The notes beneath the pieces were generated by a model that saw nothing but the letters and a program-made list of their open reading frames with translations, searched no databases and had not been told where the DNA came from. 54,732 nucleotides of DNA, taken from NCBI RefSeq assembly GCF_010093815.1, contig NW_022985574.1, forward strand, positions 89,696-144,427, written 5' to 3'. Below, one piece after another: positions 377 to 32,041 of this stretch. This DNA comes from Pseudovirgaria hyperparasitica. Its lineage: Eukaryota; Ascomycota; Dothideomycetes; Acrospermales; Acrospermaceae. Position numbers and translations under genes: made by a program. Within the stretch, counting starts at the first letter, position 1. Each line of letters starts with the position of its first letter.

Positions 377-3048
377 TAACTACTTTATATAGTATCTATT
401 TAGAATGATCCGGTAATAATAAGATATAAAATAGCTTAAGAAGCGTAATATAGAATATATTATATATCTTTAACGTAGAAGGGAGTTATAACTCGTACGC
501 CTAGTTATTAATTACACGAGTAATCTTATATAGATCTATTATTATATAGTTAAGCTTCTTCTTTGGCCTAATACTACGAATATTCTTACTATTTAGTAAA
601 ACTTTATCTCTAATATTAAAGATTATAGGTTTTCTACCCTTATTATAGTGCGATTTACTATAATTCGTAGTATCTTATAGTAACTTTATAACGCTTCTTT
701 AGGTTTAGAATAGTTCTATAGTAATTTCTATTACTTTAACGTTAGGTCGTTCTACTTTAAACTAAGTCCCTAAGAACTATATATTATAGTTCTAACCGAA
801 GTTTACTTCGAACGGACTTACGTAGGTTAATGTATATCGGCTATTATTATACGCGAATTCCGCGATATAGACTAACCTTATCTAGTTATTCTACTTATAG
901 TTATAATATACACGTAAATATACCTCGACTATCTAATTCTACCGCTCTATCTATCTATCTATTTATAGGTAGAACGTAGTACTAAGTTTCCGCTTAATTC
1001 CTAGCGTATAGTAGAAATCCTTCTAAAATTTAGACGTTATCTACGGACCTCTATCTAAAACTATACTATTTAGTATACTATAGAGCCGGACTACGTCACG
1101 GAGTAGTATATCTATAAGATCCGGTGCTTAGATTATCTTTCTTATAGGGATATAGTATAATATCTTCGTAAATCTATCTAGAACTATAAGTAAACTATTA
1201 TAAATATACCTAGAATACTTACTTAGGGGTAGATCTATAATGAAATCCATTAATAATTTCTTCTATGCCTCCTTTAGCATAGGTAATAGCCTTAATTTAC
1301 TATATAGTAAGTGTCTATATACTTTCGTATACTGGTAAACGTTATACGTTTTTATGTAGTCTTTTATATATTTATAAAGACCTAGCTAGTTATACGTCCT
1401 TCGGATTAAATCGACCGTTCTTATAATACTAAAGTACCCTACTAACGTGTAATCGTGCTATTCCCTTAATACATTAATTTATAAGCCGCCTTCCGGCACG
1501 TAGAGTCGGCCTTAGAAGTAGATCGCGTCTAATTATCGTTTCTACCTTAATAACCACGGTAGATCTATAGCGCTTCCTTTTATACTTATAACTTTCTTTA
1601 CTAATATATTAGAATTCTAGGTAGATTTAATTAAGTCTTCGAGGGTTTTCTTAGTTTCTTAGACATTTATTTAGATTACTTAATACCCGCTCTAATTCCC
1701 GCGGAGAATCGCTGAAAGTATCCTAGCTTCTAGTATTCTATTAGATAACTAGTCTTATAGTATCTAAAGTATAGTATAGTCTAACTTACACCGACTATCT
1801 ACGTTATTCTATAACGATTTCTTATAATCTTTATACCGCGATAGAGGATTAGCTTTATTCTCTCTTCTAGCTTTATATAAGATTTTAAAGTTAAATATTA
1901 ATATCTACTTAGCCTAACGTACTTATCGGCGATTAAGGACCTTAGTTAATATAAAGTAATATAGATTTACGTAATCCGATAATAATTTAATCTAATATAT
2001 AGAGCCTTCTAAATAATATCGCTATTACTTAAAACTCTTAATAATTACGAGTAGTTTCTAGTCGTGCGTGTTATAACGCGTCTCTATATCCGCCATTTTA
2101 TAGGAAAAGAAAGCGACCGGGTGCTATTACACCTTATCTTTCGTATCTTTATACGGTTAACTAATAATTCTAGTAATTATAAATTCTAACGCGTTAGTTT
2201 CGACCCGAATATACTTCTTAGAATTAAAATACCTAAGAATCGGCGTAGTTATAAAGTAATTCTTTAATAATCGGAACGTATCTTACGCTTCCGGCGTTAA
2301 CTATATCTTAACCGACTTAGCTTTATACTATGCTCGCCTACCTATAGAGATTTTACCGCCATTCTCTATAAGTTTATTAAGCGACGCCGTAATTCATAAG
2401 AAGCCTATAATAAATTTATAATAATAGTTTATAAAACCTATAAATATTCTAATTTAACGTATAGTAGTAGGTTCTAGCCATTCTATAATAGTCTTTACAC
2501 GCTCCGGCTCTATTTTTAGGCCGCTATATATTATAATAAAGCTAAGAAACCCAACTTCTTATTAGTAAAACTCGTATTTAGATAATTTTACGTAGATTTT
2601 ATACTACCTTAGACGATTTAGTACTAATTTCACGTATTCTTTATAATCCTATATACTATCGGAGTAAATTAGTATATTATTAAGATAAACTACGTAAATC
2701 ACGTTAAGTAATCCTATAAGTATAGTATTAATATATCCTTAAAACGCTCCTAGCGCATTTATTAGCCCGAATAGTATAATAGTATACTTAAAATAACTAT
2801 ATCTAGTCCGAAATGCGGTTTTCTACTTATCTCTGCGACGAATTCAAAGCCGGTAATATATATCTTATAAATCTAGCTTCGTAAAGTACTTTACCTTTAT
2901 TAATTAGTCTAAAGATTTACTAACTAGCGGTAATAGATAACGATTCTTCTTAGTTACCGTATTTAGTATCTAATAGTCGATGTATAGATGTAAACTTCCG
3001 TCTTTCTTCTTTATAAAGAGAATAGATATACTAGCCGATAATATACTA
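377..3048 (-). mobile_element. Gypsy-A copy 1 (A1), internal pol fragment
   Basis: Ty3/gypsy pol remnant on the minus strand, collinear with 13680-16293 of Gypsy-A2. From right to left it holds reverse transcriptase up to the (A)PILF-KKKDGS region near 3000-3040, RNase H, the integrase zinc and DDE core (around 920-1090 the HPQTDGQTER-type motif is readable with stops), and the start of the integrase C terminus. It is more heavily mutated than A2. It keeps 58 bp (2404-2461) that A2 has lost; these encode the conserved G-F-x-N-Y-Y-x-x-F-I segment between RT and RNase H. The left end is cut by SINE copy 1 and the right end stops abruptly at LINE-1. No LTR of this copy is in the window. Confidence 0.85.
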
Positions 3049-3285
3049 TAATAATAATAATAATATTAGTAAACTAGGTAGAGTACCACTCTATAGGCGC
3101 ATGCCTCCTCTAGTCTAAGCTACTATATAAGAAGAAACCTATAAATAGGAAAAACTCCCTTATATCTATAACTACGCTCTGTCTATCCTCTTATTCTTTA
3201 TATATATATAGCCCTAGGGGCTACCTATAGGCCTATAGCCTATATTATAATAGTTTACCCTTAGGCAGCACGTGTAGGTGCGGAG

Positions 3286-3318
3286 ATTATTAGTTAAGGG
3301 CTACCCTTAACTAATAAT
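3286..3318. repeat. Hairpin at the ORF2 stop of LINE-1
   Basis: Perfect inverted repeat: 15-bp arms (ATTATTAGTTAAGGG and its complement) around a 3-nt loop CTA (TAG in LINE sense). It is one of six copies. On the minus strand the left arm supplies the last codon and the TAG stop of ORF2. Confidence 0.95.
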
Positions 3319-6300
3319 CGCGGTTCTCCCGGGGTTCTTCCGACGTATACCGGGGTTCTTCTAGTATATATTAGGCTTCTTCCGGCATATATACGCGGGT
3401 CTACTAGAACTAGGGGAGAGGAAGGTATATAAGTATCTATCGGGCGACGTCCTTAGAGTACTTATTAAGCCATCGCGTAATATTAGAGGTCCTTATTATA
3501 CGGACGAGGGCTTATCTTAGGGTATAGAGGCTAGAGCACGTCGCGAGGTAGTAGCGTATTATACCTCTCCGGCCATAGTCCTCGTACTAGAGAGATATAT
3601 CTAGAACGCCTCTCTAGTAGAGGTAATATAGAAGATCTATAGCGTCTATTCGGGCTTAGAGGAGTATAGATACTTAGGCCTTCGTTAGCCCTTTATATAT
3701 CTATTTACTTAGTTCCTTCTAAGACCCTTAGATCTATTCTAGATACCTATCCTATTAGGAGGCCTACTAGGCTTTAAGTACCTCCCTCTATTTATTCTAG
3801 ATCCACGACCGTATAACGTGGCTAAGCTTCTTAGGGCTCTATTAGCTTAGGATGGTATCTAGGTTATTTTGAACCTCCTACGCGGTCTAGCTTAAGTCCG
3901 CCTCTATATAGTATTTATATTATACTCGAGTTTATTCTATAGTAGGGAGGGCCTAGTAATACACGGGGATACGTGTACGTAGTATAGCGAAGGTATATAC
4001 CCTATCTCCTCTACGTTCTTATACTTATTATTTAGTAAAGTATATAAGTCTCTATATCTAGTAGAAGTTCTATATACTTATTACGTTTGTCTCGCGTCGG
4101 AGGAGTATTATATTAGTAGCTTTATATACGCCGGAGATAAGATGGAGTATATGGTTTTATATAGACTTAAGCTTTACCCGCCGAGCTTATATAAGGGCCG
4201 TATACTAGTACTCGTATCTATATATAAAGGCTAGGCGTGCTAGGGAGACGTATAGCTATCTCGCCTTATCCTAGGCTATTCCCTACGTAGATGCCGTAAT
4301 CTAGTATATAGTGGTTTCTACCTAGAGGGCTCTAGAGATAGCGTGTGCCACCTATAGTCTCTATTTTAGCTTATTATCGATTATAACGCCGAGTGCGCGT
4401 ATACTCTATACTAGTAGTTCTATAAAGGCGTCGATTTAGAGGTGACGTGCCCCCTTCCTAGTAGCCTATCCTCTATAGCGGTTAATAAAGTATATAAGCT
4501 AGTATTTTTTAGGTGCGATTTTTACTCTATGGCGCTTTACCCACTAGATACATTTCTCGTGGTCTCGTTTAAGTCGTGTATATATTCTACTAGTACTACT
4601 ATCGACCGCGAGGAGGTATATATTATCCGTGTATCCGACTACCTCTATATATTCTATTCCCTAAAGGAGATCTACTATAAAGAAGAGGAAGAGGATCGGG
4701 GAGATAGTGCTCCCTTATAGGATGCCGTATACTATCTCCTTATATTCGCTTTGGTATCTAGGGATATATATTTAAGTAGTCCTTTACGCGAGGAAGGACT
4801 ATATAAATCATATAATCTACTTAGGTATTCGCCTTATCCGGAGGTTATAGATAAGTCTTATATAGTTTACCTTATTAAACGCCCCTACTATATCTAGGGA
4901 GAGTAGCGTAACGACTCGTCCTTATTTCTATATAGTCTAGATAACCTCGAGGATGTATTAAATAGCTATAATTAGGGAGCTTCCTACCTTCGCCTTCTGG
5001 TTTACTAGGAGAAGGCCGTATACCTATACTACTATACTTATCTTCTTAGTAATCGTGGCTTCTAGTACCTTACTAAGGTAGGAGAGAAGGGTAATCGGCC
5101 TCCATCCCTTCGGCGTGTTTAGGCTCTTCCCTAGTTTTAGGAGTATAACTATATATATAGTTTAGAAGCTCTATAGGTGGTATCCTATACGGGCGCACGC
5201 TCGGAATCTATAGCCTATAATTAGTAAGGTCGCCTATATAGTTCTCTTAAGGTATCGATTCGGAATTCTACCTAGCCCGGGCGCTTTATCGTTCGGGAGT
5301 GTCTTAATAGCGCCGAGTATATCGTCGTCCATGATTTCTCTAGGGATACTTATAGCTTCCGGGTATTCCGTGCCATTAATATCTAATAGGTCTACGGGTT
5401 CTAGGAGAGAGAATATAATCTCTTATAGGATCTCTATTTTCTTAAGGCTCGTGGAGTACATCTTTTCTTAACATATAAGAGGGGGTATAAGTGGTATAGG
5501 TGTCGGGGAGACGGTGCTTTTAGCCTATTTTACTATATACTATAGTCTAGTAGTATTACGTGTGTATCTATCCGTAACTATATACTACTATTTACGTTAC
5601 TTATTACGGAGGACCTTATCTCGTTATCTTCTCGCCTCTCTCTATTTATCCTACGCTTTAGATATATAGTTATAGTATACGCGTGTATATAATCTCCGGA
5701 CTTCTCGCCTATGCTCTCGTACTTAAGGTATACTTTTTAGGTCTAGGGGTCTATATATTCGGTACGGCACGTGTTTATCTCTTACTCCCTAGTACGCCTA
5801 TAGGAGTATATTTACGGCCTGGTTAATAGCCGGGCCATTAGATACGTCGACTATAGACGGGTCTAGAATCGTCGATTCTAGGTTCTTTAGGTACTTTTCC
5901 TAGTTAGTATCCTTCTATAGCTATCGCCCTCGTTAGTCTTAAGGGGTAGATACGTCTATTACGGTCTCTATATATTTATAGTCGGAGTCTATCTATATAA
6001 GGCTTAGGTAGTAGTATTAAGTTCTATTATAAATATATCTAGTGGCTAGGGTAAGGTTAAGTATAGATCCGCCCTTATCTTATTTATGTTTTCGCTAGGT
6101 AATCTATTCTACTAGTATAAGAAGATATAGGAAGCCGTAGTATTAGATGCGTAGTTCTCTAGCTCGAAGCTCTTCGCGGGTAACGGTTAGTCTACCCTAC
6201 TAGCTATAATAGAGGTTAAAGTCTCCTAGAAGGATATGTTATCCTAGCTCGGTAGTGCCCTTAAGTATATTATCCGCCTAAAGTAATCGGTTCTAATTAT

Positions 6301-6640
6301 ATATATTATATATATAGAGGGGTCCGATATTCGTCTAGAGGTGTAGTGTTATCCGGAGGTTATCCCGTTTAGTATACGACCATAATAAGAGTAGAATAGA
6401 CTTATAGATATAGAAGAGGACTCTCCTCTCCGGTCCTAGGGGGTGTATTATATAATATTCTAGGTGTGTTATTGGTTTATTCGTCTAGTAGTATTTATAT
6501 AGCTCCTATATAGCGAGTATTATAGCTCCGGTCTCCTCGAGGAGTATTACCTAGCTCTTATATTTATACTATACGTTTACTTATATAATTAGGAGTATAT
6601 CTTAGTCTCTTATTAGGTGCTAGAGAATATATAGGCCTAT
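3311..6640 (-). pseudogene. LINE-1 ORF2 (APE endonuclease, RT, terminal zinc motif), broken
   Basis: Polyprotein that in intact elements nicks the target DNA (APE-type endonuclease) and copies the element RNA by target-primed reverse transcription. Limits are transferred from LINE-2 by collinearity and are approximate at the 5' end. The frame around 5400-5265 reads cleanly through the RT 'fingers' block, including K-A-P-G and an acidic run before it. Many TAG stops lie elsewhere at Gln/Trp positions, as expected from RIP. The TAG stop (3313-3311) lies inside the left arm of the 3' hairpin, as in the other two copies. The strand is minus, so plus-strand reading frames in this interval are shadows. 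Confidence 0.78.
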
Positions 6641-6669
6641 ATATTTATTCCTCTAAGACGCGACTATCC

Positions 6670-7970
6670 TCGTATGGCGACGGCCTTAGTAATTCCTTAG
6701 GGCCGTCCTATTATTAGCTTTCTCGGGATAGTTTACTATTTCTAACTACTTCCTTATAAGGAGGTAGTCTATAGTAGTAGTATTATAGTAAAGAGAGAAA
6801 CGGTAGTAGGTCGTATCGTTTATAGCTACCTTACTCCCTTTATCCGGATTAAGTAGATATATTTAGTAATCTATTTACGTTTCACGCACGTAGCCGACTA
6901 TAACGGGTACTTACTATCGTAGTTAGAGTACTTCGCCGTGTCTCTATCCCTCTAGCCCTCTCCTTATATCCCGTAGGGGCACTTCTAGATACTATATTCT
7001 TATTAATACTATCTATACCTAGTCTTTTAGGAGTACCGCTATACTATATACCTATATCCCTAATAGTTAAAGTACTATATTATCGCCTATGCTCTATCCT
7101 ATAGTTCCGCTATAAGAAGCTCCCCTTCCGCTAGGAATCCCTCTTATATAATTTAATACGCGAGGGCGGGGTCCTTAAGCTCTACTATTATAGTAGAGTA
7201 TACCTTCGATCTAGTTTTAATCCCTTATATATTCTTCTACCATGCTCTTACGATCTTAATCCCTAGGTATTTTCGCTCGTTTAACTATTCTATCTATATA
7301 ATATCCTCTTCTCTAATAACCTATCCGCTTACGGGTATAGAGTATACCTATATCGGGTATATAGCCGCCCTAATAGAGGCGCCTAGAAAGATACTACTAA
7401 TCGCGTTCGGATTACGCGAGATAGTCTACTACGTGATATTCGTTATTATAGTAAGTACTACTCCTCCTAGCGTGAGTTTAGCGACGATAATATTTAACTA
7501 TATTCCCTTTTATTTATTAATCTTACTTACTATATCCTTTAGGGATGCTTACTAGATCTATACTAGGGTGTCCTTATCCTAGATTATAACGCGTATACTA
7601 TACGCCGAGTCGCCGGTCTAGGGGGCCCGTAGTATAGCCTCCGGTATTACTACTATTTATACCTATATACTAGGGTACTTACCTTAAGTAAGTTCCTCCT
7701 AGATTCTACGTAGGCTAGCCTCTATTTAGTTAAGTCTACCCTCCGGTTCTCCTAGTTATATCTTCTTCTTCTCCTCTATAATTCCCTTTAGATTCCGGAT
7801 AAGGTCCTAGAATATATATAGAAGGGTCTTCTAGCCCTCTCCGGCTTCCTTCTCTATACGTACTACCTAGTAGTTAATATAATCTAGGAGGGTTTCCCCT
7901 CTCGGGGTCCCCTTTATTCTATCTATCTATGGCGGCGTGCGTCTTTAGATATATTCTACGTTTTAGATAG
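6670..7970 (-). pseudogene. LINE-1 ORF1 (gag-like RNA-binding protein), broken
   Basis: Collinear with ORF1 of LINE-2 (23840-25140), from which the approximate limits are transferred. In the family this protein binds element RNA to form the transposition particle. The coiled-coil and Cys/His regions described for LINE-2 lie in the matching positions. RIP-type stops interrupt it. Confidence 0.6.
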
Positions 7971-8075
7971 GTATATAGTTACTCTCGGTAATATTACTAT
8001 ATGGCCTTTTCTATTATACCGGTAGGGGTATATCCGGTATATGCTAGGGTATGTCGGTGCCTAAGGCCGCTATAT

Positions 8076-8106
8076 TTATTAGTTAAGGGCTACCCTTAAC
8101 TAATAA
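8076..8106. repeat. Hairpin in the 5' leader of LINE-1
   Basis: 14-bp perfect arms TTATTAGTTAAGGG around loop CTA (plus strand), TAG in LINE sense. It lies about 245 nt from the 5' end of the element, before ORF1. The same position in LINE-2 has loop CTA in LINE sense, so the loop looks inverted between the copies. Confidence 0.95.
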
Positions 8107-8350
8107 AAGGGGGTCGGCGTGTTAGTATTCTAGTAGCGTAGTCCGTGCCTCTATCTCCGTGAGGATTTTAAGAGGGTATATATATATCTTTACACGGCGA
8201 TAACGTCTTGGTTTCGACGCTGCACGTACGTGTATATAGTAGTAGTTAGTGTACTCGGTATACTCTATCGATTAAGGTGTGTATCTCGCTATATTACCCC
8301 GAATGGACTAAGTTAGCCTCTTAGGGATGTAAAAGAAGTTTTTATTTCTA

Positions 8351-10382: not shown

Positions 10383-10610
10383 TGTAAGAATAGGGTTATT
10401 AGATAGTAGTGTAGTTAGATAGAATAATAGGGTGTATTCTATTATAGAACGAATTACTACCGAACCCTTTCGGTAGGAATCCGAGAGTATATATATAAAG
10501 GGACGCCGATCTATCTAGTACGTGACTATTTACCGCCCTTTACGTTACCTTCTAACTCTATTAGCTAAGGTATATATAGATTAGGTCCTACCTAAGGCTA
10601 AGTCCTAATA
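10383..10610 (-). repeat. 3' LTR of Gypsy-A2
   Basis: 228 bp, nearly identical to 18438-18665. On the plus strand it begins TGTAAGAATAGG and ends CCTAATA (CA turned to TA). It contains a TATATATAAAGGG stretch near 10487-10502. In plus orientation this points toward the antisense gene at 11246 and could serve as its promoter (inference). Confidence 0.92.
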
Positions 10611-10812
10611 ATTATCCCTTCCCTCTAGGAAGCTACCCTTAGCGACCTAGATCGTTATCTATCTCTATATCCCTATCCTAAGTCTCGTAAGACCTTAGTC
10701 GTTCTCCATGCTTCGTCTTAGATACTTACTAATATTTACCGATCTAAGATTTACATAAGCGTTTTCCTAATAAACTAAATTTTATCTATCTTAACTTCTT
10801 ATATAGGTGAGA

Positions 10813-10855
10813 TTACCTAATTAGGCCTAGCGTATCACGTGATGTGATTAGGTAA
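10813..10855. promoter_or_regulatory. Dyad with CACGTG core upstream of the antisense gene
   Basis: TTACCTAAT (10813-10821) and ATTAGGTAA (10847-10855) are inverted arms around the perfect palindrome ATCACGTGAT (10834-10843). The site lies in the 635-bp leader between the LTR and the antisense start, so it may bind a factor or be the 5' control region. The rest of 10611-11245 is AT-rich with nothing else I can name. Confidence 0.4.
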
Positions 10856-11245
10856 GCCTAGGTACTACCTATATTAAAATCTTTTCTTAGAAATATTCCT
10901 TTCTTTAAAAAACTTCTTAACTCTTTATAGAGTTTTTTAGATTATTAGATATATCACCCGATCCTTATAGATATAGATTTATATAGATTTACTATAATTT
11001 AGTATGATTTATATAATTTACTAATTTTTCTACCGTCCTTAGCTAGTAATAACATAATTCGTAATAATCTATATAAATTAATAATAATCTTAATATAGTT
11101 TCCTAAAATCTTAATACTCTAAAGTAATTAGCGCGGAAATAGGCGCCTTTAAATAATCCCTATCTTATATATGTTACCGACATATCGAAAGCTATTAATC
11201 TACCCCGACCTAGGCCGGGCTCTAATAATCTAGCTATATATTATT

Positions 11246-12076
11246 ATGGTTATTGCTTTCCGTCGTATATTACTCACGGTAGTACTAAATCTATAATATA
11301 CGGTACTTATATAACTAAGAAGCGTTATTACTTATAGATATTTAAGTAAGTTCGAAGAACTTTACGTAGATTTACTTATATTAGTATAGATTACTACTAG
11401 GCCTCTAGTAACCTCTACTAATAAGGAGCGTGGTACTACCGATCGTAACGCCTTAGAGAAGGCTTTCTACGAGCTATATACCTAAGGTAAGGGTTACGCC
11501 TAGGAGTACGATTCTAATAAGATCCGTAAGGATTTATCGGAATCTACTATAGCTATTATTACCGCGATTACTAGGTAACATTATTTTTCTTAAATTATTA
11601 TAGATTCTTACTAATATATATTAATCTCTATAATAGTACTAAAATCTCTACTACTTCGGACTTCTTTCTATATACCGGCGATATTAGAATTCCTAGAAAA
11701 GGTTCTAGTGAAAAGGCTAAGGTTCCTTCCTCGCGCGTACTAAAGAGCTATAAATTTAGGGAAGATAGCTCTAATCTAGAAGTTTCTATACTAAAGGTAT
11801 ATGGTTCTATACCGATCGTTAAATCTTTTCGCTGATTTATATAATTACTAGCGTGCCCGCGCCGTTCCGTCCCTCTCTATCCCGGGTTCTACCGCTCTAT
11901 AGGTTTCTATAGAGGAGTTTATAGCTATAAGGCACGCTATATAGAATTTATAGCGTCGGAACGAAAGGCTAGAGACTTATATTATGAAGCTCTATACTAT
12001 ACTAAACAAGAACTAGCGGAAGGAATTAGATGTAACCATCGCGGTAATTAGTACTTCTACTCCTACTCTAACTTAA
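11246..12076 (+). pseudogene. Antisense spliced gene of Gypsy-A2 (unknown 237-residue protein), broken
   Basis: Plus-strand gene inside a minus-strand retrotransposon. ATG at 11246; exon 1 to 11574; intron 1 11575-11636 (62 nt, GTAACA, TTACTAAT branch at 11608-11615, TAG); exon 2 11637-11796; intron 2 11797-11851 (55 nt, GTATAT, GCTGAT branch with A at 11835, TAG); exon 3 11852-12076, ending TAA. The exon lengths 329+160+225 sum to 714 nt, 238 codons, in phase at both junctions. Exon 2 is open throughout; exons 1 and 3 carry only TAG/TAA stops at likely Gln/Trp codons. Exon 1 has a charged segment around ALEKAFYELY. Exon 3 has a predicted coiled coil (IRHAI-NL-RRNERLETYIMKLY). I do not recognise the family; it is not gag, pol or an obvious envelope. 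Promoter may be the LTR. It is convergent with pol. Confidence 0.7.
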
Positions 12077-12293
12077 TCGGTTTAGATCTACACCGATTAG
12101 TACTAATATATCTCTTTTATCTAGCGTTTTTAGTTTTTTAGTTTTAATTTTAAAGTGATCTTACTTCTTCTAGATAGATTAGTACGAGTTTATATAGATC
12201 TATATAGATCTTTATATTTTCTTTTAGCTTTCTTAATTTTATCTTTCTTTAATAATAACTTCTTTAATCTCTTTAGTAATCTATACCGATCTA

Positions 12294-12306
12294 TACTAAT
12301 TAGCAC
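12294..12306. repeat. Target-site duplication of SINE copy 2, left
   Basis: TACTAATTAGCAC, repeated exactly at 13251-13263 right after the (ATT)n tail. 13 bp is typical of LINE-type target-primed insertion. Confidence 0.95.
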
Positions 12307-13250
12307 GGCCAGGTGGCGTAGTGGTAGTATACTACGTTACTAGAAGCGTTTGTTATCCAACGTCGTGGGTTCGAATTCTATAACGGCTACCTTTTTACAT
12401 ACTAGTTTTTACACGCTCTATTAAAAAGTATATGGGGCTAAGCGAGTACGTGACGTAAAGGTTACCGTTATATAACTACTTAGTCCTAAGCGACTATTAG
12501 GTAATATGAAAATAACTATACCGTTATTACATAATAAGAATTACCTAATATAGCTATCTACTAAGCTACCTTAAGTAGTAGAGCGACGCCTAGAGCGGCT
12601 AGACCCATAACTAGCTTAGCTCGAATCATAGAATTTTCACTATATACCGGGGCCTTGTCTACCCTAATCCGGCTTAGCTCGCGCTTACTCCGGCTCGGTA
12701 ACCACGAAATAGACGGTAATACCTAATTAAGTATCCCGCCTACCTATAGACGATTATATAGCCCCGAAGAATAATTTCCGAATTCGGCCTAGCTAGGGTT
12801 AGTACTAAGGCATGGACCTATTAGATATACACCCCCTCCGGTATTAGTCATCTTAATTAATAACTACTACCTAGCGTAAAGCTATATTCCTATAGATAGG
12901 AAAAAACACGGTAACATAGGAATAAAAGACTAGGCCTAGCCTAGCGACCTACCCAATCACAAGAAAGGTAATACCTACTATAGTTGGTTAGGGCGTTATT
13001 AAGAGCCGGTACTAATATAGTAATAAAAGCCTAATATAAGGATAAGAAGTAAGTTTATTACCCAATGGGATTCGAGGACTTAGACTAGGCTAGGTTAGGT
13101 TAGTAATAGGGTCTAGTTAGGGAGCTAATCATAGGAGGTTTTCTTATATACATAGCAGCCAATACTAGAGGAGGCCTGAGCCTATGGAGCATATATATAG
13201 CTATATATATAGTTCTTCCTAGTTAAACACTAATATTATTATTATTATTA
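12307..13250 (+). mobile_element. SINE copy 2, complete, tRNA head and LINE-like tail
   Basis: 944 bp, flanked by an exact 13-bp target duplication. The 5' head (about 12307-12391) is tRNA-like with Pol III A and B boxes. The body (about 12400-13130) matches nothing else here except SINE copy 1 and has no ORF; it contains a 10-bp inverted repeat (12496-12505 / 12540-12549). The 3' about 110 bp (13139-13250) resemble the LINE 3' end: TTCTTATATA, CTAGAGGAGGC, GCCTAT-GAG, CCTAGTTA, then (ATT)n. This suggests the LINE RT recognises this tail and moves the SINE (inference). It is unusually long for a SINE. It sits between the convergent pol and antisense genes of Gypsy-A2. Confidence 0.88.
12314..12378 (+). 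promoter_or_regulatory. Pol III A and B boxes of SINE copy 2
   Basis: A box TGGCGTAGTGG at 12314-12324; B box GGTTCGAATTC at 12368-12378 (one base from the consensus, kept intact in copy 1). Seven bases precede the A box, as in a tRNA acceptor strand. Acceptor pairing is only partial, so this is a tRNA-derived promoter, not a functional tRNA gene. Confidence 0.85.
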
Positions 13251-13263
13251 TACTAATTAGCAC
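13251..13263. repeat. Target-site duplication of SINE copy 2, right
   Basis: Exact repeat of 12294-12306, directly after the (ATT)n tail at 13234-13250. Confidence 0.95.
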
Positions 13264-13389
13264 CGATTTTCGATGTCCATTTCTCTTAGTAAATCATTTT
13301 TCTAAGTCTCTTTTTTAGTTAAATTTTTTAAAGTTCTAAGTTTGAACTTTCTAAGGAAGTTCCTTAATTCCTTAGAATGTTTTAAAGAT

Positions 13390-16300
13390 CTATGTCTCTT
13401 TCACCTTCTTCCTTTTAGGCGGCCGTCCTTAGCGCCGAACTATACTAAAAAACGTTAAATCGCCGTACTTTGGTATAATTCTCTGCGATTCCGTGGCTTC
13501 CTTTACTAATCGCTACTTATATACTAATATCGCTGCTTTACTAATGTTTATTATAGGTTCCTAAGTATCTTTATTAGGATTATATTCTTTCTAACGAATT
13601 TTATATAGCCACGTGCCATCTTCGGCGTGTTACTAGCTAAGTATCTACTTAACTTTATAGATATCTATACCTTCTTACGTAACTACTTTATATAGTATCT
13701 ATTCGGAACGATCCGGTAATAATAAGGCATGAAATGGCTCGAGAAGCGTAATATAGAATATATTATACATCTTTAACGTAGGAGGGAGTTATAACTCGTA
13801 CGCCTGGTTATTAATTACACGAGTAATCTTATATAGACCTATTATCATATAGTTAAGCTTCTTCTTTAGCCTAATACTACGAATATTCTTACTATTTAGT
13901 AAAACTTTATCCCTAACATTAAAGATTATAGGTTTTCTACCCTTATTATAGTGCGATTTACTATAATTCGTAGTATCTTATAGTAACTTTATAACGCTTC
14001 TTTACGTTTAGAATAGTTCTATAGTAATTTCTATTACTTTAACGTTAGGTCGTTCTACTTTAAACTAAGTCCCTAAGAACTACGTATTATGGTTCCGACC
14101 GAAGTTTACTTTAAACGGACTTACGTGGGTTAACGTATGTCGGCTATTATTATACGCGAATTCCGCGATATAGACTAACCTTACCTAGTTATCCTACTTA
14201 TAGTTATAATATACGCGTAAATACGCCTCGACTATCTAATTCTACCGCTCCGTCTATCTATCTATTTATAGGTAGAACGTAGTACTAAGTTTCCGCTTAA
14301 TTCCTAGTGTATAGTAGAAATCCTTCTAAAATTTAGACGTTATCTACGGACCTCTATCCGAAACTATACTATTTAGTATACTATAGAGCCGGACTAGGTT
14401 ACGGAGTAGTATATCTATAAGATCCGGTGCTTAGATCGTCTTTCTTATAGGGATATAGTATAATATCTTCGTAAATCTATCTAGAACTACGAGTAAACTA
14501 TTATAAATATACCTAGAATACTTACTTAGGGGTAGATCTATGATAAAATCCATTAATAATTCCTTCTATACCTCCTTTAGCATAGGTAATAGCCTTAATT
14601 CGCTATATAGTAAGTGTCTATATACTTTTGTATGCTGGTAAACGTTATATATTTTTACGTAGTCTTTTATATATTTATAAAAACCCGGCTAGTCGTACGT
14701 CCTTCGGATTAAATCGACCGTCCTTATAACGCCGAAGTGCCCTACTAACGCGTAATCGTGCTATTCCCTTAAAACATCGATTCGTAAGCCGCCTTCCGGT
14801 ATATAGAGTCGGCCTTAGAAGTAGATCGCGTCTAATCGTCGTTCCTACCTTAATAACTATAGCGGATCTATAGCGCTTCCTTTCATGCTTATAACTTTCT
14901 TTACTAATATATCGGAATTCTAGGTAGATTTAATTAAGTCTTCGAGGGTTTTCTTAGTTTCTTAGACGTTTATTTAGATTACTTAATACCCGCTCTAATT
15001 CCTGCGGAGAATCGCCGAAAGTATCCTAGCTTCTAGTATTCTATTAGATAACTAGTCTTATAGTATCTAAAGTATAGTATAGTCTAAATTACACCAACTA
15101 TCTACATCATTCTATAACGATTTCTTATAATCTTTACGCCGCGATAGAGGATTAGCTTTATTCTCTCTTCTAGCTTTATATAAGATTTTAAAGTTAAATA
15201 TTAATATCCACTTAGCCTAACGTACTTATCAGCGATTAAGGACCTTAGTCGATATAAAGTAATATAGATTTACGTGATCTAATAATAATTCGATCTAATA
15301 TATAGAGCCTTCTAAATAATATCGCTATTACTTAAAACTCTTAACGATTACGAGTAGTTCCTAGTTATACGTATTATAACGCGTCTCTATATCCGCCATT
15401 TTATAGGAAAAGAAAGCGACCGGGTGCTATTACACCTTGTCTTTCGTATCTTTATACGGTTAACTTATAATTCTAGTAATTATAAATTCTAACGCGTTAG
15501 TTTTAACCTAAATATACTTCTTAGAATCGAAATGCCTAAGAATCGGCGTAGTTATAAAGTAATTCTTTAACGATCGGAACGTATCTCGTGCTTCCAGCGT
15601 TAACTATATCTTAACCGACTTAGCTTTACGCTATACTCGCCCATCTATAGGGATTTTACCGCCATTCTCTATGAGTTTATTAAGCGGCGCCGCAATTCGT
15701 AAGAAGTAGTAGTAGGTTCTAGCTATTCCATAATAGTCTTTACACGCTCCGGCTCCATTTTTAGGCCGCCATGTGTTATAATAAAGCCGAGAAACCTAAC
15801 TTCTTGTTAGTGAAACTCGCATTTAGATAATTTTACGTAGAGTTTATACTACCTTAGACGATTTAGCACTGATTTCACGTGTTCTTTATAATTCTATATG
15901 CTATCGGAGTAAATTAGTATATTATCGAGATAAACTACGTAAATCACGTTAAGTAATCCTACGAGTATAGTGTTAATATATCCTTAAAACGCTCCTAGCA
16001 CATTTATTAGCCCGAATAGTATAATAGTATACTTAAAATAACTATATCTAGTCCGAAATGCGGTTTTCCACTTATCTCCACGACGAATTCGAAGCTAGTA
16101 ATATATATCTCGTAAATCTAGCTTCGTAAAGTACTTTACCTTCGTTAATTAGTCTAAAGATTTACTAACTAGCGGTAATAGGTGACTATTCTTCTTAGTT
16201 ACTGTATTTAGTACCTAATAGTCAACGTATAGATATAAACTTCCGTCTTTCTTCTTTATAAAGAGAATAGGTGCGCCGGCCGATAACGTACTACGACGTA

Positions 16301-18437
16301 TCTAGCCTCTTTTAAGGTATTCTTTAATGTATTTACGAAGAACTTTGAGTTCTAGTCTCGAAAGTAGGTAAAGTAGACTATAAGGGACGTCTACTCCCTC
16401 TTTAAGTACGATCTTTAGCTTATGCGGCCCGTGATTAGGGAGAAGTAATGCATCTCCTACCGAAAATATATCCGTATACTACGAATATACGTCGGGTAGC
16501 GTATCTTCGCCCCGATTATTACTATCGTCCTCGTCTTTATTAACGATTAATAAGAATATAAGATAGATTAGCGACGATCGGGTCCGTATGGTAAGGTTCC
16601 ATGCCTTCTTACTAATAGTTACGACTTACTAGTATAATTTACCATAGTACTATCGGAACGTTAATATCTCCTTCTAAAAATTAAGGATGGGGTTTAGGCG
16701 TCTAAGCTAAGGCATCCCTAGAATTATATTCTATTAGCTAATATTAGCCACGATAAATTCATTAGACATCTACTATTTTATTATCTTCGAGTCATGAACT
16801 TCGTAATTCGTTATAGCTTTACCCAAAGTTCTAACTTTATATCTATTAACTACGATAGTTCGGCTAACTTTACCAAGATCGTACGATAATCTATACTCCT
16901 TTATAAGAATCGACGAAATATAGTTATCTTCTATACTAGTGTCTATAAGGGCCTATATAGTTTTATTACCATTTACTATAGGTAACGATACTTTTAGTAA
17001 TATTAGGTCTTTACTCGCCGGAAGGCGCTACGGCTCCTTCTAAGTATATATAATTTAGCTAAGGACGCGGTTAGATCTCGTGTACTAGCCTATTCTTTTT
17101 TTAGATTCTTATAGTTAGGTAAAATATATCCTATTTCTCTATACTTATAGTAACGAAGTACGCTATAATCCTACTATTTTATGATAGGCGTTATATTTAA
17201 GCCTATGCCTTATCCTTTTCCGCGTTAAGAAGCACCGCCTTAATTGTTTCGGTATCCTCTTAACGCGTTTCTACCCCGATTTACGCTCTTCTAGCGCTAA
17301 TCGCGGTAAGGTTACTCTTAATCGAACGTATTCGATTGACCTCGTTTCTAACCCATATAGGGTTCGTCAGTTTTACCTAGAGAGCCGCGTTCCTTAAGGA
17401 TGCGGTAGTATTTATTAGCTTTCTCCTCTAATTCGTGTAGATAGTTAAAACTTAATAATACTATTCCTAGTCTTTCGCGGATTAACGGAAGTAGTACTTC
17501 GCGAAACTAGAATATATGAATATTTTCCTATAGCGTAGGGATATTATCCTATAGGTTTTAGAGGTATTATAGTAGTTAAGTAGGTGTCTAGTTCGGTCGT
17601 TATGCCACGCTTCTTAACTTAGATAGTACCTTTCTTTTACGTTCTCTATCCGTTCCGAGGGTGTTTAGTATAAATATAGCTAAATATTCCTAGGTTATCG
17701 TAGATAGTAGCTATACTTCCTTCTATCTATCCTATTAATCGCGGGATTATAAGTCTAGGTATCGTTCTCCGAACGAAATGCGTTATACTTTAGTAGAAAA
17801 GAGTAGAGGGTTATCGAGGAAGTACTTTTCGCAGTCTCTCTTCTAGTCTTTCTACTCCTTTTAGTTCTTCCCTATAAATATAGTCGGGTCTTTAGGTTTC
17901 GGCATACCTAGAGAAGGAGTAGGGTAAATCGGTAACGAAGCGGCTGGGTATACGGTAGATTATCGTAACTCTAATAGTAGGTAAACTAATTCCGCCTAAA
18001 TTAGTATAGGAAGTCGTCCACCTACTATCGTTCGGCGTAGTTCTTTAAGAGACTCCTTAAGTTCTCGTCTCTTTGCGAGGAGTTTCGCGCGTTCTATCTA
18101 TTCTTTAAGGGTTTGAATCTCTTAAGCCTAATTCATGATGTATTCCTAAAGTTCGGCGATGGTTTATTATAATATCTTACGTGGCTCCGCCACGACTCGT
18201 TATCCGGCTTTATATTATTAGAAGTTACTCGGCGTATCTACCATTTCTTCGTCTAAAAGCTCCGTGATTTAGTCTAATATTTCCACTTCTCGGTTAGAAA
18301 CGGCCGGGATTAATGCCGATTATAGAGGATCCCTATTATTTAATATAGTGTTACTTATCCCTATAGTGGATCGTGTCGACCTTCTCGGTTCTAGTTAGAC
18401 TATCTTAACTATAGTACTATATAGGGAGTAATTTGAA
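13390..18437 (-). pseudogene. Gypsy-A2 gag-pol with chromodomain, broken
   Basis: From right to left on the minus strand: gag (about 18400-17160); zinc knuckle 17152-17111, where the C-x2-C-x4-H-x4-C positions read Tyr because TGY and CAY became TAY; protease with ALIDT-x-x-EDNYIS near 16960-16900 and ILGMP-LRRLNP near 16730-16690; RT with GAPILFIKKKDGS near 16290-16240 and VYLDNILIYSDS (YxDD box, D to N) at 15938-15896; RNase H; integrase core with FTSKF, RKLSTT and TDGQTER-type motifs at 14390-14225; chromodomain at about 13650-13563 (YKIR-KEYNPNKDT-EP, Trp as stop). A basic GRPPKRKK tail at 13438-13405 resembles an AT-hook; the stop is at 13392-13390. A 58-bp deletion at 15706/15707 removes the GFxNYY block. 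The chromodomain fits chromoviruses, which target modified histones. Confidence 0.88.
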
Positions 18438-18665
18438 TATAAGAATAGGGTTATTAGATAGTAGTATAGTTAGATAGAATAATAGGGTGTATTCTATTAT
18501 AGAACGAATTACTACCGAACCCTTTTGGTAGGAATCCGAGAGTATATACATAAAGGGACGCCGATCTATCTAGCACGTGACTGTTTACCGCCCTTCACGT
18601 TACCTTCTAACCCTGTTAGCTAAGGTACGTGTAGGTCGGGTCCTGCCTAAGGCTAAGTTCTAATA
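18438..18665 (-). repeat. 5' LTR of Gypsy-A2
   Basis: 228 bp. Begins TATAAGAATAGG on the plus strand (TG turned to TA relative to 10383) and ends CTAATA. It is less mutated in its right half (GCACGTGACTG, TAGGTCGGGTCC) than the 3' LTR. The matching duplication TAGAG follows at 18666-18670. Confidence 0.92.
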
Positions 18666-18965: not shown

Positions 18966-19205
18966 TATAAGAATTATAGACGTAGGATAGTAGTCTAACA
19001 GGTTATAGGAGGATTCGGGAATATATTTAAAAGGGTAGTCTACTCTTCTAACGAGGTTAATTCCTAAAGAGTAGAAATTAAGTATATACGGCCTACTTAT
19101 ATAGTAGTCTCGCTTATTCTAGCTGGCTTAACCTAGGTCCACCTATTACGGACCGTACTAGACCATAGTAGTCTAGTTAAGTCTATCCTAGTATTAGCCC
19201 TAATA
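18966..19205 (-). repeat. 3' LTR of Gypsy-B1
   Basis: 240 bp, TATAAGAATTATAGACG to GCCCTAATA on the plus strand. The terminal TG and CA have become TA. The same 240 bp recurs at 32042, 45716 and 53487. Confidence 0.95.
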
Positions 19206-19692
19206 ATATCCTTCTTCTTTTTATACTTCGCCCCGAAGTACTTAGCTATATATAAATCTATAATTCTATAAGCTTTATATTTATACGCGCATCTAATTAA
19301 ATCTATATAATATTATTAATAGTCTTTATATTAGTAAACTTAAGCTCTAGTTTACTTTTATTTATATACGCGCTTATCCCTTACTTTATAGCTACTACCT
19401 TAGAGATAGCTCCGTGGGTTATATAACCGCTATATTAACTAAGCTTATATTTAGTTCTCTTATTCTAAATTTTCTTCTCTAGTATATCTACCTTACTCTT
19501 AAGGTAAGTCGTTAATTTATATACTATCTTCTTTAGTTTAGATCCATTCGGGTCTAGAGTAGTCTATTTTTATTAGAGCTGGTCCTATATAATCTATTCG
19601 TGTTATTATAGTTACTAATTTAGCTTCTTTAATTACCTTTAAGACTAAACGAGTATTCTACTCTTAGATCTCTAGCTAATATATATATATAG

Positions 19693-21165
19693 ATATCTAA
19701 TACTAGTTCTATTCCTAAGCCTACCTCCTCCTCTTATAAGACTTACTCTAAAGAGATTATCTCTACCCCGGCTATACCGGCTAAAAAATCTACTTATTAT
19801 AGTAGTATAAAGGCGCGCTCTAAGTTAGAGAAGAAGGTAGCTAAGGCTACTACTACTATTACTACTAACGTAGCCACTAGTCGCTCTAATCTAGATAATT
19901 CTAGTACTAGTATTGCGGAAGAGATAGCTATAAAGCCTATCTATACCTACTCACGCTATCTATCTACTCTACCTTCTTTAGAGGATAAAGAAGATCTTAT
20001 TATAGATAATAATCGAGAGTTTACGTCTTCGCCGCCTTACTCTAAACGCCGTTCCTCTTTTCGGTCTAATATAGACTAACTTAGTCGCTCTAGGTCCTTT
20101 TAGGACCTTAATATTCGCTCTAAACCTAGCCCTAGTAATAATAAGGCCTAGGTCGCTAAAGATACTAAACGTAGTTACGGTTTACGCTATAGGAAAATAG
20201 CGAACTACGGTTCGATATACTTTAAGTATATTTAGGCTTATACTACTAGCTCTAAATATCTCTTCCGCTCTAACTCTAGTATTAGCTACTACTCTACTAA
20301 CCGCGACGGGCCTATATACCTAATCTTTAAGCTCCCTACCCGCTACTACCGCTATACTATCCTTAGTAAAGTTTATCTTTAGGTAAGTCTATTAGACTAT
20401 TTTAGTCTAGGGTAATCTAAAGTTATCTATACTAATATATTTTTAGGTTTCTATTTATATATAAGATATATATAACGATCTTCGTGTCCGTAAGACTCTC
20501 GGCGGTTCTAGTAGTTATCTAGCTTCTATATATAGGGAGTTTAGAGAGCGCTATAAGTTCTTTCTAGAGGTTATTAAAGTATAAGTTTAGAAACCGTTAA
20601 TTATTATTAACCTTAGCTTATAATTTTTAGTCGCCGCGAGATTCCTAGCACTTAGGCTACCTATTCTAGGGAGTCGGTTTTAGCTACTAAGGCCGTAGAA
20701 GAGATTCGTACTATTTCTTTCTACCCGCCTTATACTACTAACGGGTCTTATAAGAGATCTACTAGTTCTCCTTCTAAGTTACCTTATAAGAGGGTATATA
20801 TTCTATTCTAGATTATTCTAGACCGCGTTAGCTAACTTTAGGTCTAGTCGCTCCGCTCTAGCGCTTAGTTATTGTCTTACTAGGCTCTAACTAAGCGCGT
20901 GGTTACTCTAGAGAATAAGGTCTCTAACCTCCGTCGCTCTATTACTTAGTTAGTTCGTTTACCATACTCTAAGAGTAATAATAAGATAGAGGAGTAGCTC
21001 TATAGCTCTATTTACTAGGGTTTCTATATAGTATATATTAGCTCTATCTACCTAGTTTCTATCTATTTTAGTCCTTTTTAGACCGTTTAGATATCTATCT
21101 ACTAGTTTTCTAGTAATTTAATTCTTAACTTAATAATATTATATACGTTCTTATTTATTCTATAA
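19693..21165 (+). pseudogene. Antisense gene of Gypsy-B1 (unknown protein, at least one intron), broken
   Basis: Plus-strand gene opposite to gag-pol. Exon 1 runs 19693-20382, 230 codons, starting at an ATA that is probably a mutated ATG. Its stops (near 20077, 20101, 20149, 20233, 20380) are all TAA/TAG at likely Gln codons. The intron 20383-20446 (64 nt) has GTAAGT, a TACTAAT branch (20430-20436) and TTTTTAG, and joins in phase 0. Exon 2 continues from 20447 to about 20578 (YREFRERYKFFLEVIK). A second frame change lies within 20579-20631 (GT at 20579, AG at 20616 or 20630; boundaries not fixed). The last part, from 20632, has ATKAVEEIRT and a coiled coil (KRVVTLENKVSNLRR). The N-terminal part is Ser/Thr/Lys-rich. 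I do not recognise the family. It is convergent with pol, as in Gypsy-A2. Confidence 0.7.
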
Positions 21166-21254
21166 CTATTAAATTTTAGGTTCTAATTTCCTTTAAGTTA
21201 CTTAAGTATAGGTATTATATATAAATTAGTTTATCTCTCTAAATTATATTAGAG

Positions 21255-21292
21255 TACCCGAACTAGTAGCCTAGTAGTTATTAGTTCGGGTA
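21255..21292. terminator. Hairpin between the convergent genes of Gypsy-B1
   Basis: TACCCGAACTA (21255-21265) and TAGTTCGGGTA (21282-21292) form an 11-bp perfect stem with a 16-nt loop. It lies between the antisense gene and the 3' end of pol, so it may mark the end of both transcripts (inference). In Gypsy-B2 (48005-48042) the right arm is mutated. Confidence 0.4.
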
Positions 21293-21680
21293 CCCTAACT
21301 TTTTATATTATATATTACGAGTTTAATTCCGTAGTAGGGTACCTTTTTAGTTTCTTAGTTCTATATTCTTCTCGTGGATAATAGTCTATATTAGTCTATT
21401 CTAGACTTCTCTATATTATTCTATTATAATATATCGCGTCGCGTATCTATAACGGTTATTTACGTTTTCTTCGCGTTTAGTAACCGTACATCGCTTGAAT
21501 TATAGGGCTACCTTATAGAGTTTTCCTAGTATACGTTTAGGATTTATAATTCGATACTTTGTTCTCTATAGTATCCTTCTTCTTTTTATAACGGCCCTAA
21601 TAGCGCTAGGTTTACGGTAGTAACGTATTATCCTATAACCTCTATTTATATATAGCTATCACGGTACTTAAGATATATAC

Positions 21681-23446
21681 TATAGGTTCCTAGGTATTCT
21701 TATCCTTGGTGTAGTTCTTCTAACGGATTCGATACTTTTAGACACCGTTCTTATTAAGTCTATGTTCGATAATATAGTCTACTTTATATACGTCTAGTCT
21801 ATCTTAGGGTATAATACAGTATAATTATACATTTATACGTTTATATATATTAGGTCGAAACCTTTCAAGTAATATAACGTGGAACATATTATAGACTTTT
21901 ATATTATTTCCTAGGTCGAGCTCGTAGACTCTTATACTAATATAACGTTTGATTTAGAAGGGACTAGCCATTTTATAATTAAGCTTTTTATTTACTTATA
22001 ACATTTATATATTATAGATATTAAGAAGGACTTCGTCTTCCTTCTCGTACGCTTAATCTTTAACTAATCTATTATAGTACTTTATATATAACTTATTTAC
22101 TTACTAGATTATTACGCGATAGTTATATATAGTTTTAAAGATTTTAATTACTAGTTCCTACGCGTAGACGTTAACATCTATCGTTTAGTCGAACTAGACC
22201 GTATAAGGTTCGAAATCTATCCTTAGACTATATCCTAGGTTCGCCTAGAAGAGCGTGACACCTATTATACTATAACGACTATTATTATACGCGAATTCTA
22301 CTATACTTAGTAGAGAGGCCTAGTCGTCTTATTTAAAATTATAGAATATATGAAGGTAGGCCTTGAGCGTTTAGTTCTATCGCTCTATCTAACCATCTAT
22401 TTATAGATAGAATACTATTAACATATTTCTATTTATACCGGCTATTTCGTAGAATAACATCTAGAATTTAGACATGAATATACTCCCTTAGTCTATAACG
22501 ATCCTTTTCGGTATACTATAGACCTTAATAATCTTATTCTAGAATACTTATGCTAGTTCTTTTAATATAATTATCTTCTATATAGGGACGTACCTAGATA
22601 TCTTTATAAGTCTATCTACGATAATAAGAATTAAATTATAACTTATTCTAAGTATCTTACTTAGAGGTAAGTTAACTATAAAATCTATAGTAATATCTTC
22701 CTATATAAAGAGGGGGACTAGTAGAGACTATAAGTTCCTATATAGCTTATATCTAGGTGCCTTTATTCTTTAATAAATTAGATAAGTAGCTATCTATTCT
22801 TCGATATACTTAGATATATCTTTCTAAAAATAGTACTAACGAATCGAGCTTAGGGTGCGTATATACCCGAAATATTCTACTAGGTTAGCGTTATGGTATC
22901 GGCTAACTATAGTAAATCATGCGTTACCTATCGGTATATAGTACTTTCTATTATAGTAGAGCAAGCCGTCCACGAAGGTCTACTTATAGTCTACTTCGGT
23001 CTATAAGAATCTATCTTACTATATTTTATATAACTTTAAAACTATTAGGTCTATCTTTTATAGATCCGCGATTAACTAGGCGAGCTCTACTTAATATACA
23101 CGCTAGGCACTATCGCCCTCCCTAATAGCGCCGATAAATGGCTTACTAGGGACTTTAGTACCGTGTCTTTAGTTACTAGCTTCGGTCTTATAAATTTAAT
23201 TACTAGTATCGGCGTTAGTATCTCGCTAATTATTAGATAACTTATTATCTAACCTCGTCCTTAAGAGTTAGATCTATAGCTACTCTAGGACCCTATAGCT
23301 ACTATAATCCTAGGCGCCTTCTTTATAGTTAGGTCTTCTTAATATTCTATTAGCTAGGTTTATACTTCTAGGTCGATAGTAGATTATAAAGTAGAAATTT
23401 ATAAGCTACTTAGCCTATTAAACCTATTAACGATTTAAAACCGTTA
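21681..23446 (-). pseudogene. Gypsy-B1 pol, 3' part (RNase H end, integrase, chromodomain)
   Basis: Downstream of the LINE-2 insertion on the minus strand. The RNase H terminus (YRP-x-S-I-N-x-A-N-R-I-L-R-R-P-type, about 23380-23330) is followed by the integrase with its zinc region. The core HPQTDGQTER-type motif is readable with stops near 22510-22370. A C-terminal FHV-LLE-FRPN-type block lies near 21900-21850. The chromodomain is at about 21795-21681 (VDYIIEHRLNKNG, then KYRIR-KNYTKDKNT-EP with Trp as stop). Plus-strand frames here are shadows. Confidence 0.85.
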
Positions 23447-23458
23447 TACTTATAAACC
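23447..23458. repeat. Target-site duplication of LINE-2, left
   Basis: TACTTATAAACC, repeated exactly at 28752-28763. The single-copy empty site is at 50197-50208 in Gypsy-B2. Confidence 0.97.
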
Positions 23459-23703
23459 ATATTAGAAAAAAAACTTCTTACACCCCAACGGACTAAACTA
23501 GTTAATTCGGGGTAAAATAGCGATTTATATACATTAAACGATAGAGTACACCGAGTATAATAACCTCCGACACACGTATATACGTATAGTATATAATACG
23601 CGACGATACTAACGTGTAGAGATACTATATATATATACTTAAAGACTCTTCGATAACATGAGTATAGACTATATCTAATAAACGCCGACACGCCGACCCT
23701 CTT

Positions 23704-23734
23704 TTATTAGTTAAGGGCTACCCTTAACTAATAA
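23704..23734. repeat. Hairpin in the 5' leader of LINE-2
   Basis: 14-bp perfect arms around loop CTA, 245 nt from the element start. Identical arms to the other five copies. Confidence 0.95.
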
Positions 23735-23839
23735 CCATAGCGGCTTTAGGTATCGTAATACCCCGGTAGACGCTAGATATACCCCCACTAGTACGGTAGA
23801 AACGGCTATATAGCAATATTAATGTGGATAGCTAGACAC

Positions 23840-25140: not shown

Positions 25141-25169
25141 CTCTAAGGAATAAGTATATAGGTATATAT

Positions 25170-28100: not shown

Positions 28101-28487
28101 TATAAAGGGCTAATAAAAGCCTAAGTATCTATACTTATCTAAGCCCGAACGGGCGCTATAGAACTCCTATACTATATCTATAAGAGAGGCGTTCCCGATA
28201 TCTCTCTATAGTATAAGGCGTGCGGCCGGAGAGGTATAATACGCTACTATCTAGCTATATACCCTAACCTCTATATATAACGGTAATAGCTTATCCACGT
28301 TACGAAGACTTTAGATATTATATAATAGCTTAATAAGTACCCTAAGGACGTCTCCCGATAGATGCTTATATATCTACTACTTCTCTAGTACTAGTAGACC
28401 TAGAAATATATACTAGAAGAGACCTAGTATACGCTAGTAGTAACCCGATATATACCGGAAGAACCCTAGGAGAACCCCGATTATTAG
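25170..28487 (+). pseudogene. LINE-2 ORF2 (APE endonuclease, RT, terminal zinc motif), broken
   Basis: APE-type endonuclease at the N terminus (about 25190-25850; the block ILAIQEP near 25275-25300 is the family's AI-EPW motif). RT follows: an open stretch at 26382-26597 contains ILPNNKVPRLDRILNRYLK, the family's K-A-P-G-P-D-G-I-P-N block with RIP changes. Then comes LSLNMAGVFNKVNH (about 26900-26940) and EYANNIYLLA near 27160-27190, the Y-A-D-D box with both Asp read as Asn. Later come a conserved thumb region and a C-terminal Cys/His motif (about 28190-28275: TIRH-LAT-PNL with Cys as Tyr). No RNase H was seen. The TAG stop at 28485-28487 lies in the hairpin. Confidence 0.88.
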
Positions 28488-28511
28488 TTAAGGGCAGCCC
28501 TTAACTAATAA
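28481..28511. repeat. Hairpin at the ORF2 stop of LINE-2
   Basis: 14-bp perfect arms around loop CAG, probably the unmutated loop; the other copies have TAG, CTA or TAA. Contains the ORF2 stop. Confidence 0.95.
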
Positions 28512-28751
28512 CCTCCGCACCTATACGTGCTACCTAAGGGTAAAATAACGGTAATATAGGCTATAGGCTAATAGGCGTACTCTATAGCTATATACTTAAG
28601 ACGAAACAGAGGTTTAACGAGATGTAGTTATAGATATAAGGAAGTTTTTCCCTATAGGGTTTCTTCTTATATAGTAGCTTAGACTAGAGGAGGCATAGGC
28701 CTATAGAGTACTACTCTACCTAGTTATATAATATTATTATTATTATTATTA

Positions 28752-28763
28752 TACTTATAAACC
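28752..28763. repeat. Target-site duplication of LINE-2, right
   Basis: TACTTATAAACC, exact match to 23447-23458. The Gypsy-B1 sequence resumes here without loss. Confidence 0.97.
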
Positions 28764-32000: not shown

Positions 32001-32041
32001 TTCTATAAACTACCGTCGTGCTATATAAAGAGGAATTAAAA

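What the first reader, a model, noticed from the sequence alone, without database searches (positions are those of the whole stretch)
11246..12076. Spliced antisense gene inside a fungal chromovirus (Gypsy-A2)
Between pol and the 3' LTR a plus-strand gene runs against gag-pol. ATG, two short introns with good 5', branch and 3' signals, correct phase at both junctions and a stop give 238 codons. All breaks are RIP-type, so it was once coding. Antisense extra ORFs are known in some plant Ty3/gypsy elements (for example Grande); I know of no described fungal chromovirus gene with introns on the opposite strand. An intron read on the strand opposite to the genomic RNA would survive retrotransposition, which explains why it can exist in a retroelement. 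The protein ends in a coiled coil and has no family I recognise.
Basis: partly seen in the sequence, partly recalled or inferred. Interest (0 to 1): 0.88.

Follow-up and report, generated by a model that had tools for sequence, protein, structure and literature searches.

The report
Spliced antisense gene in fungal retrotransposon
A fungal jumping gene carries, on the strand opposite to its own replication genes, the mutated remains of what looks like a small gene with introns; similar backward genes are already known in Botrytis and in plants, so this is a good new example rather than a new kind of thing.

Summary
The window holds a RIP-saturated Ty3/gypsy element (10385-18665, gag-pol on the minus strand). 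Between pol and the 3' LTR a plus-strand gene-like stretch runs against gag-pol, as reported; it is in 20 of 20 further copies fetched.

Limits: stop counts alone favour an unspliced stretch; two of seven pol controls lack the purine bias; no intact copy in 27 rows; one stop is unchanged in all 103 copies matched. The 5' end is uncertain: a four-exon model from 11182 has 7 stops instead of 9. 'Chromovirus' is untested.

New: the window's second gypsy family has a similar spliced, zipper-ending candidate, but the opposite strand scores higher there. No homologue in 5.8 billion proteins, Pfam or PDB.

Most likely an accessory coiled-coil regulator, analogous to BRTN, Grande gene23 and HBZ; the function is inferred. 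RNA evidence is lacking.

The parts
10385..10610 (-). 3' LTR of element A (by eye it begins at 10383; flanks CAGAG and TAGAG look like a 5-bp target duplication)
   Evidence: 92.9% to 18440-18665 over 226 bp; flanks read from the sequence
18440..18665 (-). 5' LTR of element A
13260..18430 (-). gag-pol region, RIP-broken; approximate limits
   Evidence: minus-strand piece 13792-13977 like SH3_Tf2-1, E 3e-6, below cut-off; homologous stop-free pieces of copies L015 and L026 pass the cut-off, 55 and 60 bits against 30
10611..11181 (+). leader between 3' LTR and antisense gene; likely promoter region (inferred)
   Evidence: no codon periodicity in 10611-11245: 0.44/0.44/0.42
   Evidence: ATG in 10 of 26 rows, fewer stops; composition favours neither model
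11346..11400 (+). possible extra intron, 55 nt
   Evidence: GTAAGT in 19 of 27 rows, TAG in 27 of 27, in phase; not chosen by the model search
   Evidence: purines 0.67/0.49/0.35; best of six frames by composition
11575..11636 (+). intron, 62 nt
   Evidence: chosen by model search; GT in 22 of 27, TAG in 26 of 27
11637..11796 (+). exon without stops in the window copy
   Evidence: purines 0.64/0.47/0.40
11797..11851 (+). intron, 55 nt, CTGAT branch-like motif
   Evidence: chosen by model search; GT in 23 of 27, TAG in 27 of 27
11852..12076 (+). last exon, coiled coil, TAA stop
   Evidence: purines 0.61/0.39/0.45; heptad periodicity, 4 and 5 of 400 shuffles as high in two copies
12297..13259 (.). 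later insert, separate ~945-bp repeat; not part of the element
   Evidence: 18 of 20 copies join ~12296 directly to ~13249-13260; 23 other copies over 750 bp at 92-96% in the genome
19693..20382 (+). family B candidate antisense gene, exon 1 (second copy at +26750)
   Evidence: 128-codon open run; strand uncertain
20447..20580 (+). family B candidate, exon 2, between introns 20383-20446 and 20581-20630
   Evidence: first donor GT in 11 of 15 rows and TAG in 15 of 15; second donor GT in 3 of 15, read from the hexamers listed
20631..21015 (+). family B candidate, exon 3 with four leucines spaced by seven; 3' end uncertain

Best explanation
Element A carried an accessory gene transcribed against gag-pol from a promoter in or next to the 3' LTR, spliced at two (probably three) short introns, and coding for about 240 residues that end in a leucine-zipper-like coiled coil. 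The genomic RNA is the other strand, so these introns are not removed from the retrotransposition template and persist in the copies. The protein probably formed coiled-coil oligomers and regulated the element in the nucleus, as proposed for Grande gene23 and known for HTLV-1 HBZ. Shown by sequence: place, orientation, codon periodicity, intron positions, multicopy presence. Inferred: transcription, splicing, nuclear role. RIP has since broken each of the 27 copies examined. I give about 0.8 to 'was a spliced antisense protein gene' and about 0.35 to the regulator role.
For: Purine periodicity, 0 of 5000 and 0 of 1400. A purine model from family B gives the proposed frame 10.1 and the other five -46.5 to 2.6. 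20 of 20 fetched copies; no indel in the exons in 26 of 27 rows. Coiled coil. Precedents: brtn, Grande gene23 (PMC7264820, passages).
Against: Stops alone favour an unspliced plus-strand stretch. Two of seven pol controls lack the purine bias. In one search the last exon scored higher in another plus frame. Five stops unchanged in 27 of 27 rows and one in 103 of 103 copies. The minus strand of A also beats shuffles, 12.5, though less, and copy L017 has a 92-codon minus-strand open run opposite the gene. No homologue, no RNA data.
Confidence: 0.45

Rival explanations
1. The region makes a spliced antisense non-coding RNA or dsRNA that regulates the element; the frame is a decayed relic or incidental.
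For: No intact frame in 27 rows; fixed stop in 103 of 103 copies. PMC7264820 (passage) raises this for plant elements.
Against: Codon periodicity and coiled coil.
Confidence: 0.2
2. A host gene or a piece of another mobile element was captured once in the ancestor and amplified with the element without a role.
For: Introns, and no relation to gag or pol; no homologue found.
Against: Conserved in both subgroups of the family, with a weak codon-position-3 excess of shared transversions; genome-wide no un-RIPed copy matched at the one site tested.
Confidence: 0.2
3. The coding strand is the minus strand (an extension or env-like gene after pol), and the plus-strand periodicity is its mirror image.
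For: The purine pattern is partly self-complementary; minus beats shuffles in A, and in family B exceeds plus (26.2 against 22.4; stops only 12.5 against 8.6). L017 has a 92-codon minus-strand open run here.
Against: In A plus exceeds minus, 17.5 against 12.5; 0.62/0.43/0.43 fits plus better than its mirror 0.57/0.57/0.38; exon 11402-11574 favours plus by composition; the plus introns shift frame in phase.
Confidence: 0.08
4. Chance: no gene was ever there.
For: Stop density is only modestly low, 10 of 300 shuffles; RIP makes all stops excusable.
Confidence: 0.07

Closest known systems
brtn of Boty-like Ty3/gypsy retrotransposons (Botrytis cinerea, Sclerotinia sclerotiorum; Zhao et al. 2011, seen only as title and in citing passages)
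   Same: Fungal Ty3/gypsy, extra gene in antisense; PMC7264820 (passages) places it between pol and 3' LTR
   Different: Sequence not available here, so homology untested; intron content unknown to me; Boty gag-pol has a chromodomain (PMC4227169, passage), not shown here
Antisense aORFs of plant Ty3/gypsy elements (Grande gene23, RIRE2, Retand, PvRetro13)
   Same: [quoted passage not shown] Grande's protein is nuclear and transcribed from its own promoter (PMC7264820, PMC11963269, passages)
   Different: Plants; no similarity found; introns not mentioned in the passages read
HBZ of HTLV-1
   Same: Antisense proviral gene for a nuclear protein (PMC11963269, passage); spliced, 3'-LTR-driven, leucine zipper (recalled)
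   Different: Vertebrate retrovirus; analogy only

Membership tests
Ty3/gypsy LTR retrotransposon | paired LTRs around gag-pol | tested here: met
   LTR pair 92.9% alike; integrase SH3_Tf2-1 above cut-off in two sister copies
Chromovirus | chromodomain at the integrase C-terminus | tested here: inconclusive
   none among the pieces sent to Pfam; pieces listed were not scanned
Antisense accessory gene between pol and 3' LTR (kind of brtn, Grande gene23) | position and orientation in most copies | tested here: met
   20 of 20 fetched copies hold the interval, 19 of 20 adjoin the 3' LTR
Antisense accessory gene between pol and 3' LTR (kind of brtn, Grande gene23) | protein-coding frame | tested here: inconclusive
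   periodicity and model search for; no intact copy
Antisense accessory gene between pol and 3' LTR (kind of brtn, Grande gene23) | own antisense transcript | not testable with these tools
   no RNA data
BRTN protein family | sequence homology to BRTN | not tested
   BRTN sequence not held; database searches gave no relative of any kind

The most novel reading that the evidence does not exclude
Two gypsy families in one fungus, without detectable similarity in this region, each carry a multi-intron antisense gene ending in a leucine zipper: either a very old, fast-evolving class of spliced antisense regulators in fungal Metaviridae, or convergent acquisition. Antisense placement would then be a general way for an RNA-copied element to keep an intron-containing gene.
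Probability: 0.3. Interest if true: 0.7.

Novelty: new member of a known kind. Interest (0 to 1): 0.45.

Why it matters
It would extend antisense accessory genes of LTR retroelements to a further fungal family and give intron positions for one. It also shows that purine/pyrimidine codon periodicity can point to genes in RIP-destroyed DNA, where stop codons say little, with the caveat that some pol controls failed. If the second family is confirmed, spliced antisense regulators would look recurrent in fungal gypsy elements, and stranded RNA-seq could test this directly.

Tried and rejected
The four-exon A protein came after the third search and was compared only with Pfam and PDB (no Pfam family; PDB E 0.5 and above). 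PDB with the nine-copy alignment: one match, E 0.33. Pfam on the alignment: one weak match in 1 of 9 members, E 0.094.

Family A against B: no significant match.

Codon model trained on pol: training frames were guesses. With the B-pol model the proposed frame was best of six in 3 of 3 exons, with the A-pol model in 2 of 3; family B's exons were not favoured. Given little weight.

The first led to the four-exon model; the second stays unexplained.

Reading the fixed stop at 11900 as a 3' splice site would remove it; not excluded, judged unlikely because the branch-like motif would be about 70 nt away (inference).

tRNA-like look of the insert: ARAGORN and Rfam report none in the window. The bacterial promoter scan does not apply to a fungus.

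Composition test: supports exon 11402-11574; ties or near-ties with minus-strand frames in the next two exons; does not favour either first exon; for family B a minus frame scores highest in exons 1 and 3.

Full report
WHAT IS THERE. The window lies in a 35-Mb, 59-contig genome without a name; that it is a fungus is taken from the RIP-like pattern and the short introns, no call names it. Element A has LTRs at 10385-10610 and 18440-18665, 92.9% alike over 226 bp. Pol pieces are on the minus strand: 13792-13977 resembles the Tf2-1-type integrase SH3 domain (E 3e-6, below cut-off); homologous pieces of two sister copies pass the cut-off (55 and 60 bits against 30), and a third copy shows a weak integrase core. 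So the left LTR is the 3' LTR, and the reported gene lies between it and pol, on the other strand.

IT BELONGS TO THE ELEMENT. The interval matches at 94-95% over its whole length in 39 other places (40 scored of 132 candidates, window included). I fetched the 20 best. The interval is present in 20 of 20; 19 of 20 adjoin the 3' LTR (L020 is truncated); 18 of 20 join ~12296 directly to ~13249-13260 (not L020 and L027). So 12297-13259 of the window is a later insert. An older subgroup, 82.8-86.8% identical, has it too (8 loci).

IS IT CODING? Stops are weak evidence. Over 10611-12296, stops fixed in 21 rows per frame are 51, 35, 26 on plus and 50, 30, 47 on minus. RIP makes only transitions, so purine/pyrimidine is unchanged by it. 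Controls in the same call: of seven pol stretches, two of them overlapping, four show a clear position-1 excess in some minus frame, one a weak one, two none (14310-14700, 15800-16480); so lack of bias does not exclude coding, and the measure is not uniform. A model search with stops, purine frequencies that I set from recall, and loose intron signals, told no frame or intron, chose introns 11575-11636 and 11797-11851 exactly: score 17.5, shuffle maximum 12.1, 0 of 200; minus strand 12.5, also above the shuffles, as the pattern is partly self-complementary. I take a former plus-strand protein gene as likely (about 0.8).

THE 5' END. The model search begins at 11318, not at 11246. A start at 11182 in another frame, with an intron 11346-11400, joins in phase to the later part; it has 7 stops instead of 9, and its start is ATG in 10 of 26 rows against 7 of 27. 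Shared transversions fall at position 3 in 10 of 18 (p 0.043) against 9 of 18 (p 0.108) (uncorrected). Against it: purine bias is slightly lower (0.179 against 0.196), and the model search reads through that intron. I prefer four exons, about 60:40.

THE STOPS. Of 32 rows (31 and the window) 5 partial ones were dropped (two second copies in L021, one in L018, L033, L034). In the other 27 the four-exon model has 6-10 stops each; ten stop columns occur, five of them a sense codon in at least one copy and five stops in 27 of 27. For one of the latter a RIP-tolerant pattern found 103 copies with the stop and 0 with either of two sense forms. At variable sites mean retention of CA was 14% and of TG 20%, but 206 of 291 TA-type sites never vary; so this neither proves nor refutes RIP origin. 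No intact copy was seen.

SECOND FAMILY. Family B (18966-32279, interrupted by a nested element, and 45715-53729) has a plus-strand low-stop frame in the same place, with a 128-codon open run at 19693-20079. Three exons can be drawn with introns 20383-20446 and 20581-20630, the last with four leucines spaced by seven. In 15 rows the first donor is GT in 11 and its acceptor TAG in 15; the second donor is GT in 3. The model search found the first intron exactly and a second at 20579-20640, score 22.4, but the minus strand scored 26.2 (stops only 8.6 against 12.5), and composition does not favour plus. Shared transversions at position 3: 8 of 17, p 0.172; all transversions 20 of 41, p 0.029. I treat B as a candidate. 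A and B show no sequence similarity here.

PRODUCT AND MECHANISM. The A product has no relative in Pfam, PDB or the protein database at useful scores; RIP-changed residues reduce the reach of these searches. Its last exon has heptad periodicity, 4 and 5 of 400 shuffles as high in two copies; in B 12 and 1 of 400. I infer a coiled-coil regulator made from a spliced antisense mRNA whose promoter lies in the leader or 3' LTR. Introns on that strand are not seen by the splicing of genomic RNA, so they survive retrotransposition (inference).

KNOWN OR NEW. Zhao et al. 2011, seen only as title and in citing passages, reports 'the additional antisense gene brtn' in Boty-like elements of Botrytis cinerea (PMC8365987, passages). 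[quoted passage not shown] PMC5987419 (passage) mentions a BRTN-like transcript in Monilinia. PMC2864245 (passages) marks an additional ORF of unknown function in an element figure, orientation not stated in what I saw. Among the listings I saw no other fungal antisense gene, and the passages I read mention no introns in one; the library lacks most subscription journals, so this does not show that none is in print.

Noticed in passing
18966-32279 and 45715-53729: A second gypsy family with a plus-strand spliced candidate gene in the same place; the minus strand scores higher there, so the coding strand is open.
   Followed up: partly
12297-13259, and inverted in part at 1-376: A ~945-bp repeat with a tRNA-like start and a TAT-rich end (by eye), SINE-like, inserted in this copy of element A; 23 other copies over 750 bp at 92-96%. 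ARAGORN and Rfam call no tRNA.
   Followed up: partly
L045, L046, L048, L049; window 20361-20765: In these four family B copies shared transversions cluster in one ~400-bp block, as if exchanged with a diverged subfamily.
   Followed up: no
3038-8350, 23463-28758, 36100-39125: A third repeat family, about 75% alike among its copies, one copy nested in family B; not identified.
   Followed up: no
377-3025: A second, partial copy of element A's pol region, about 93% identical.
   Followed up: no
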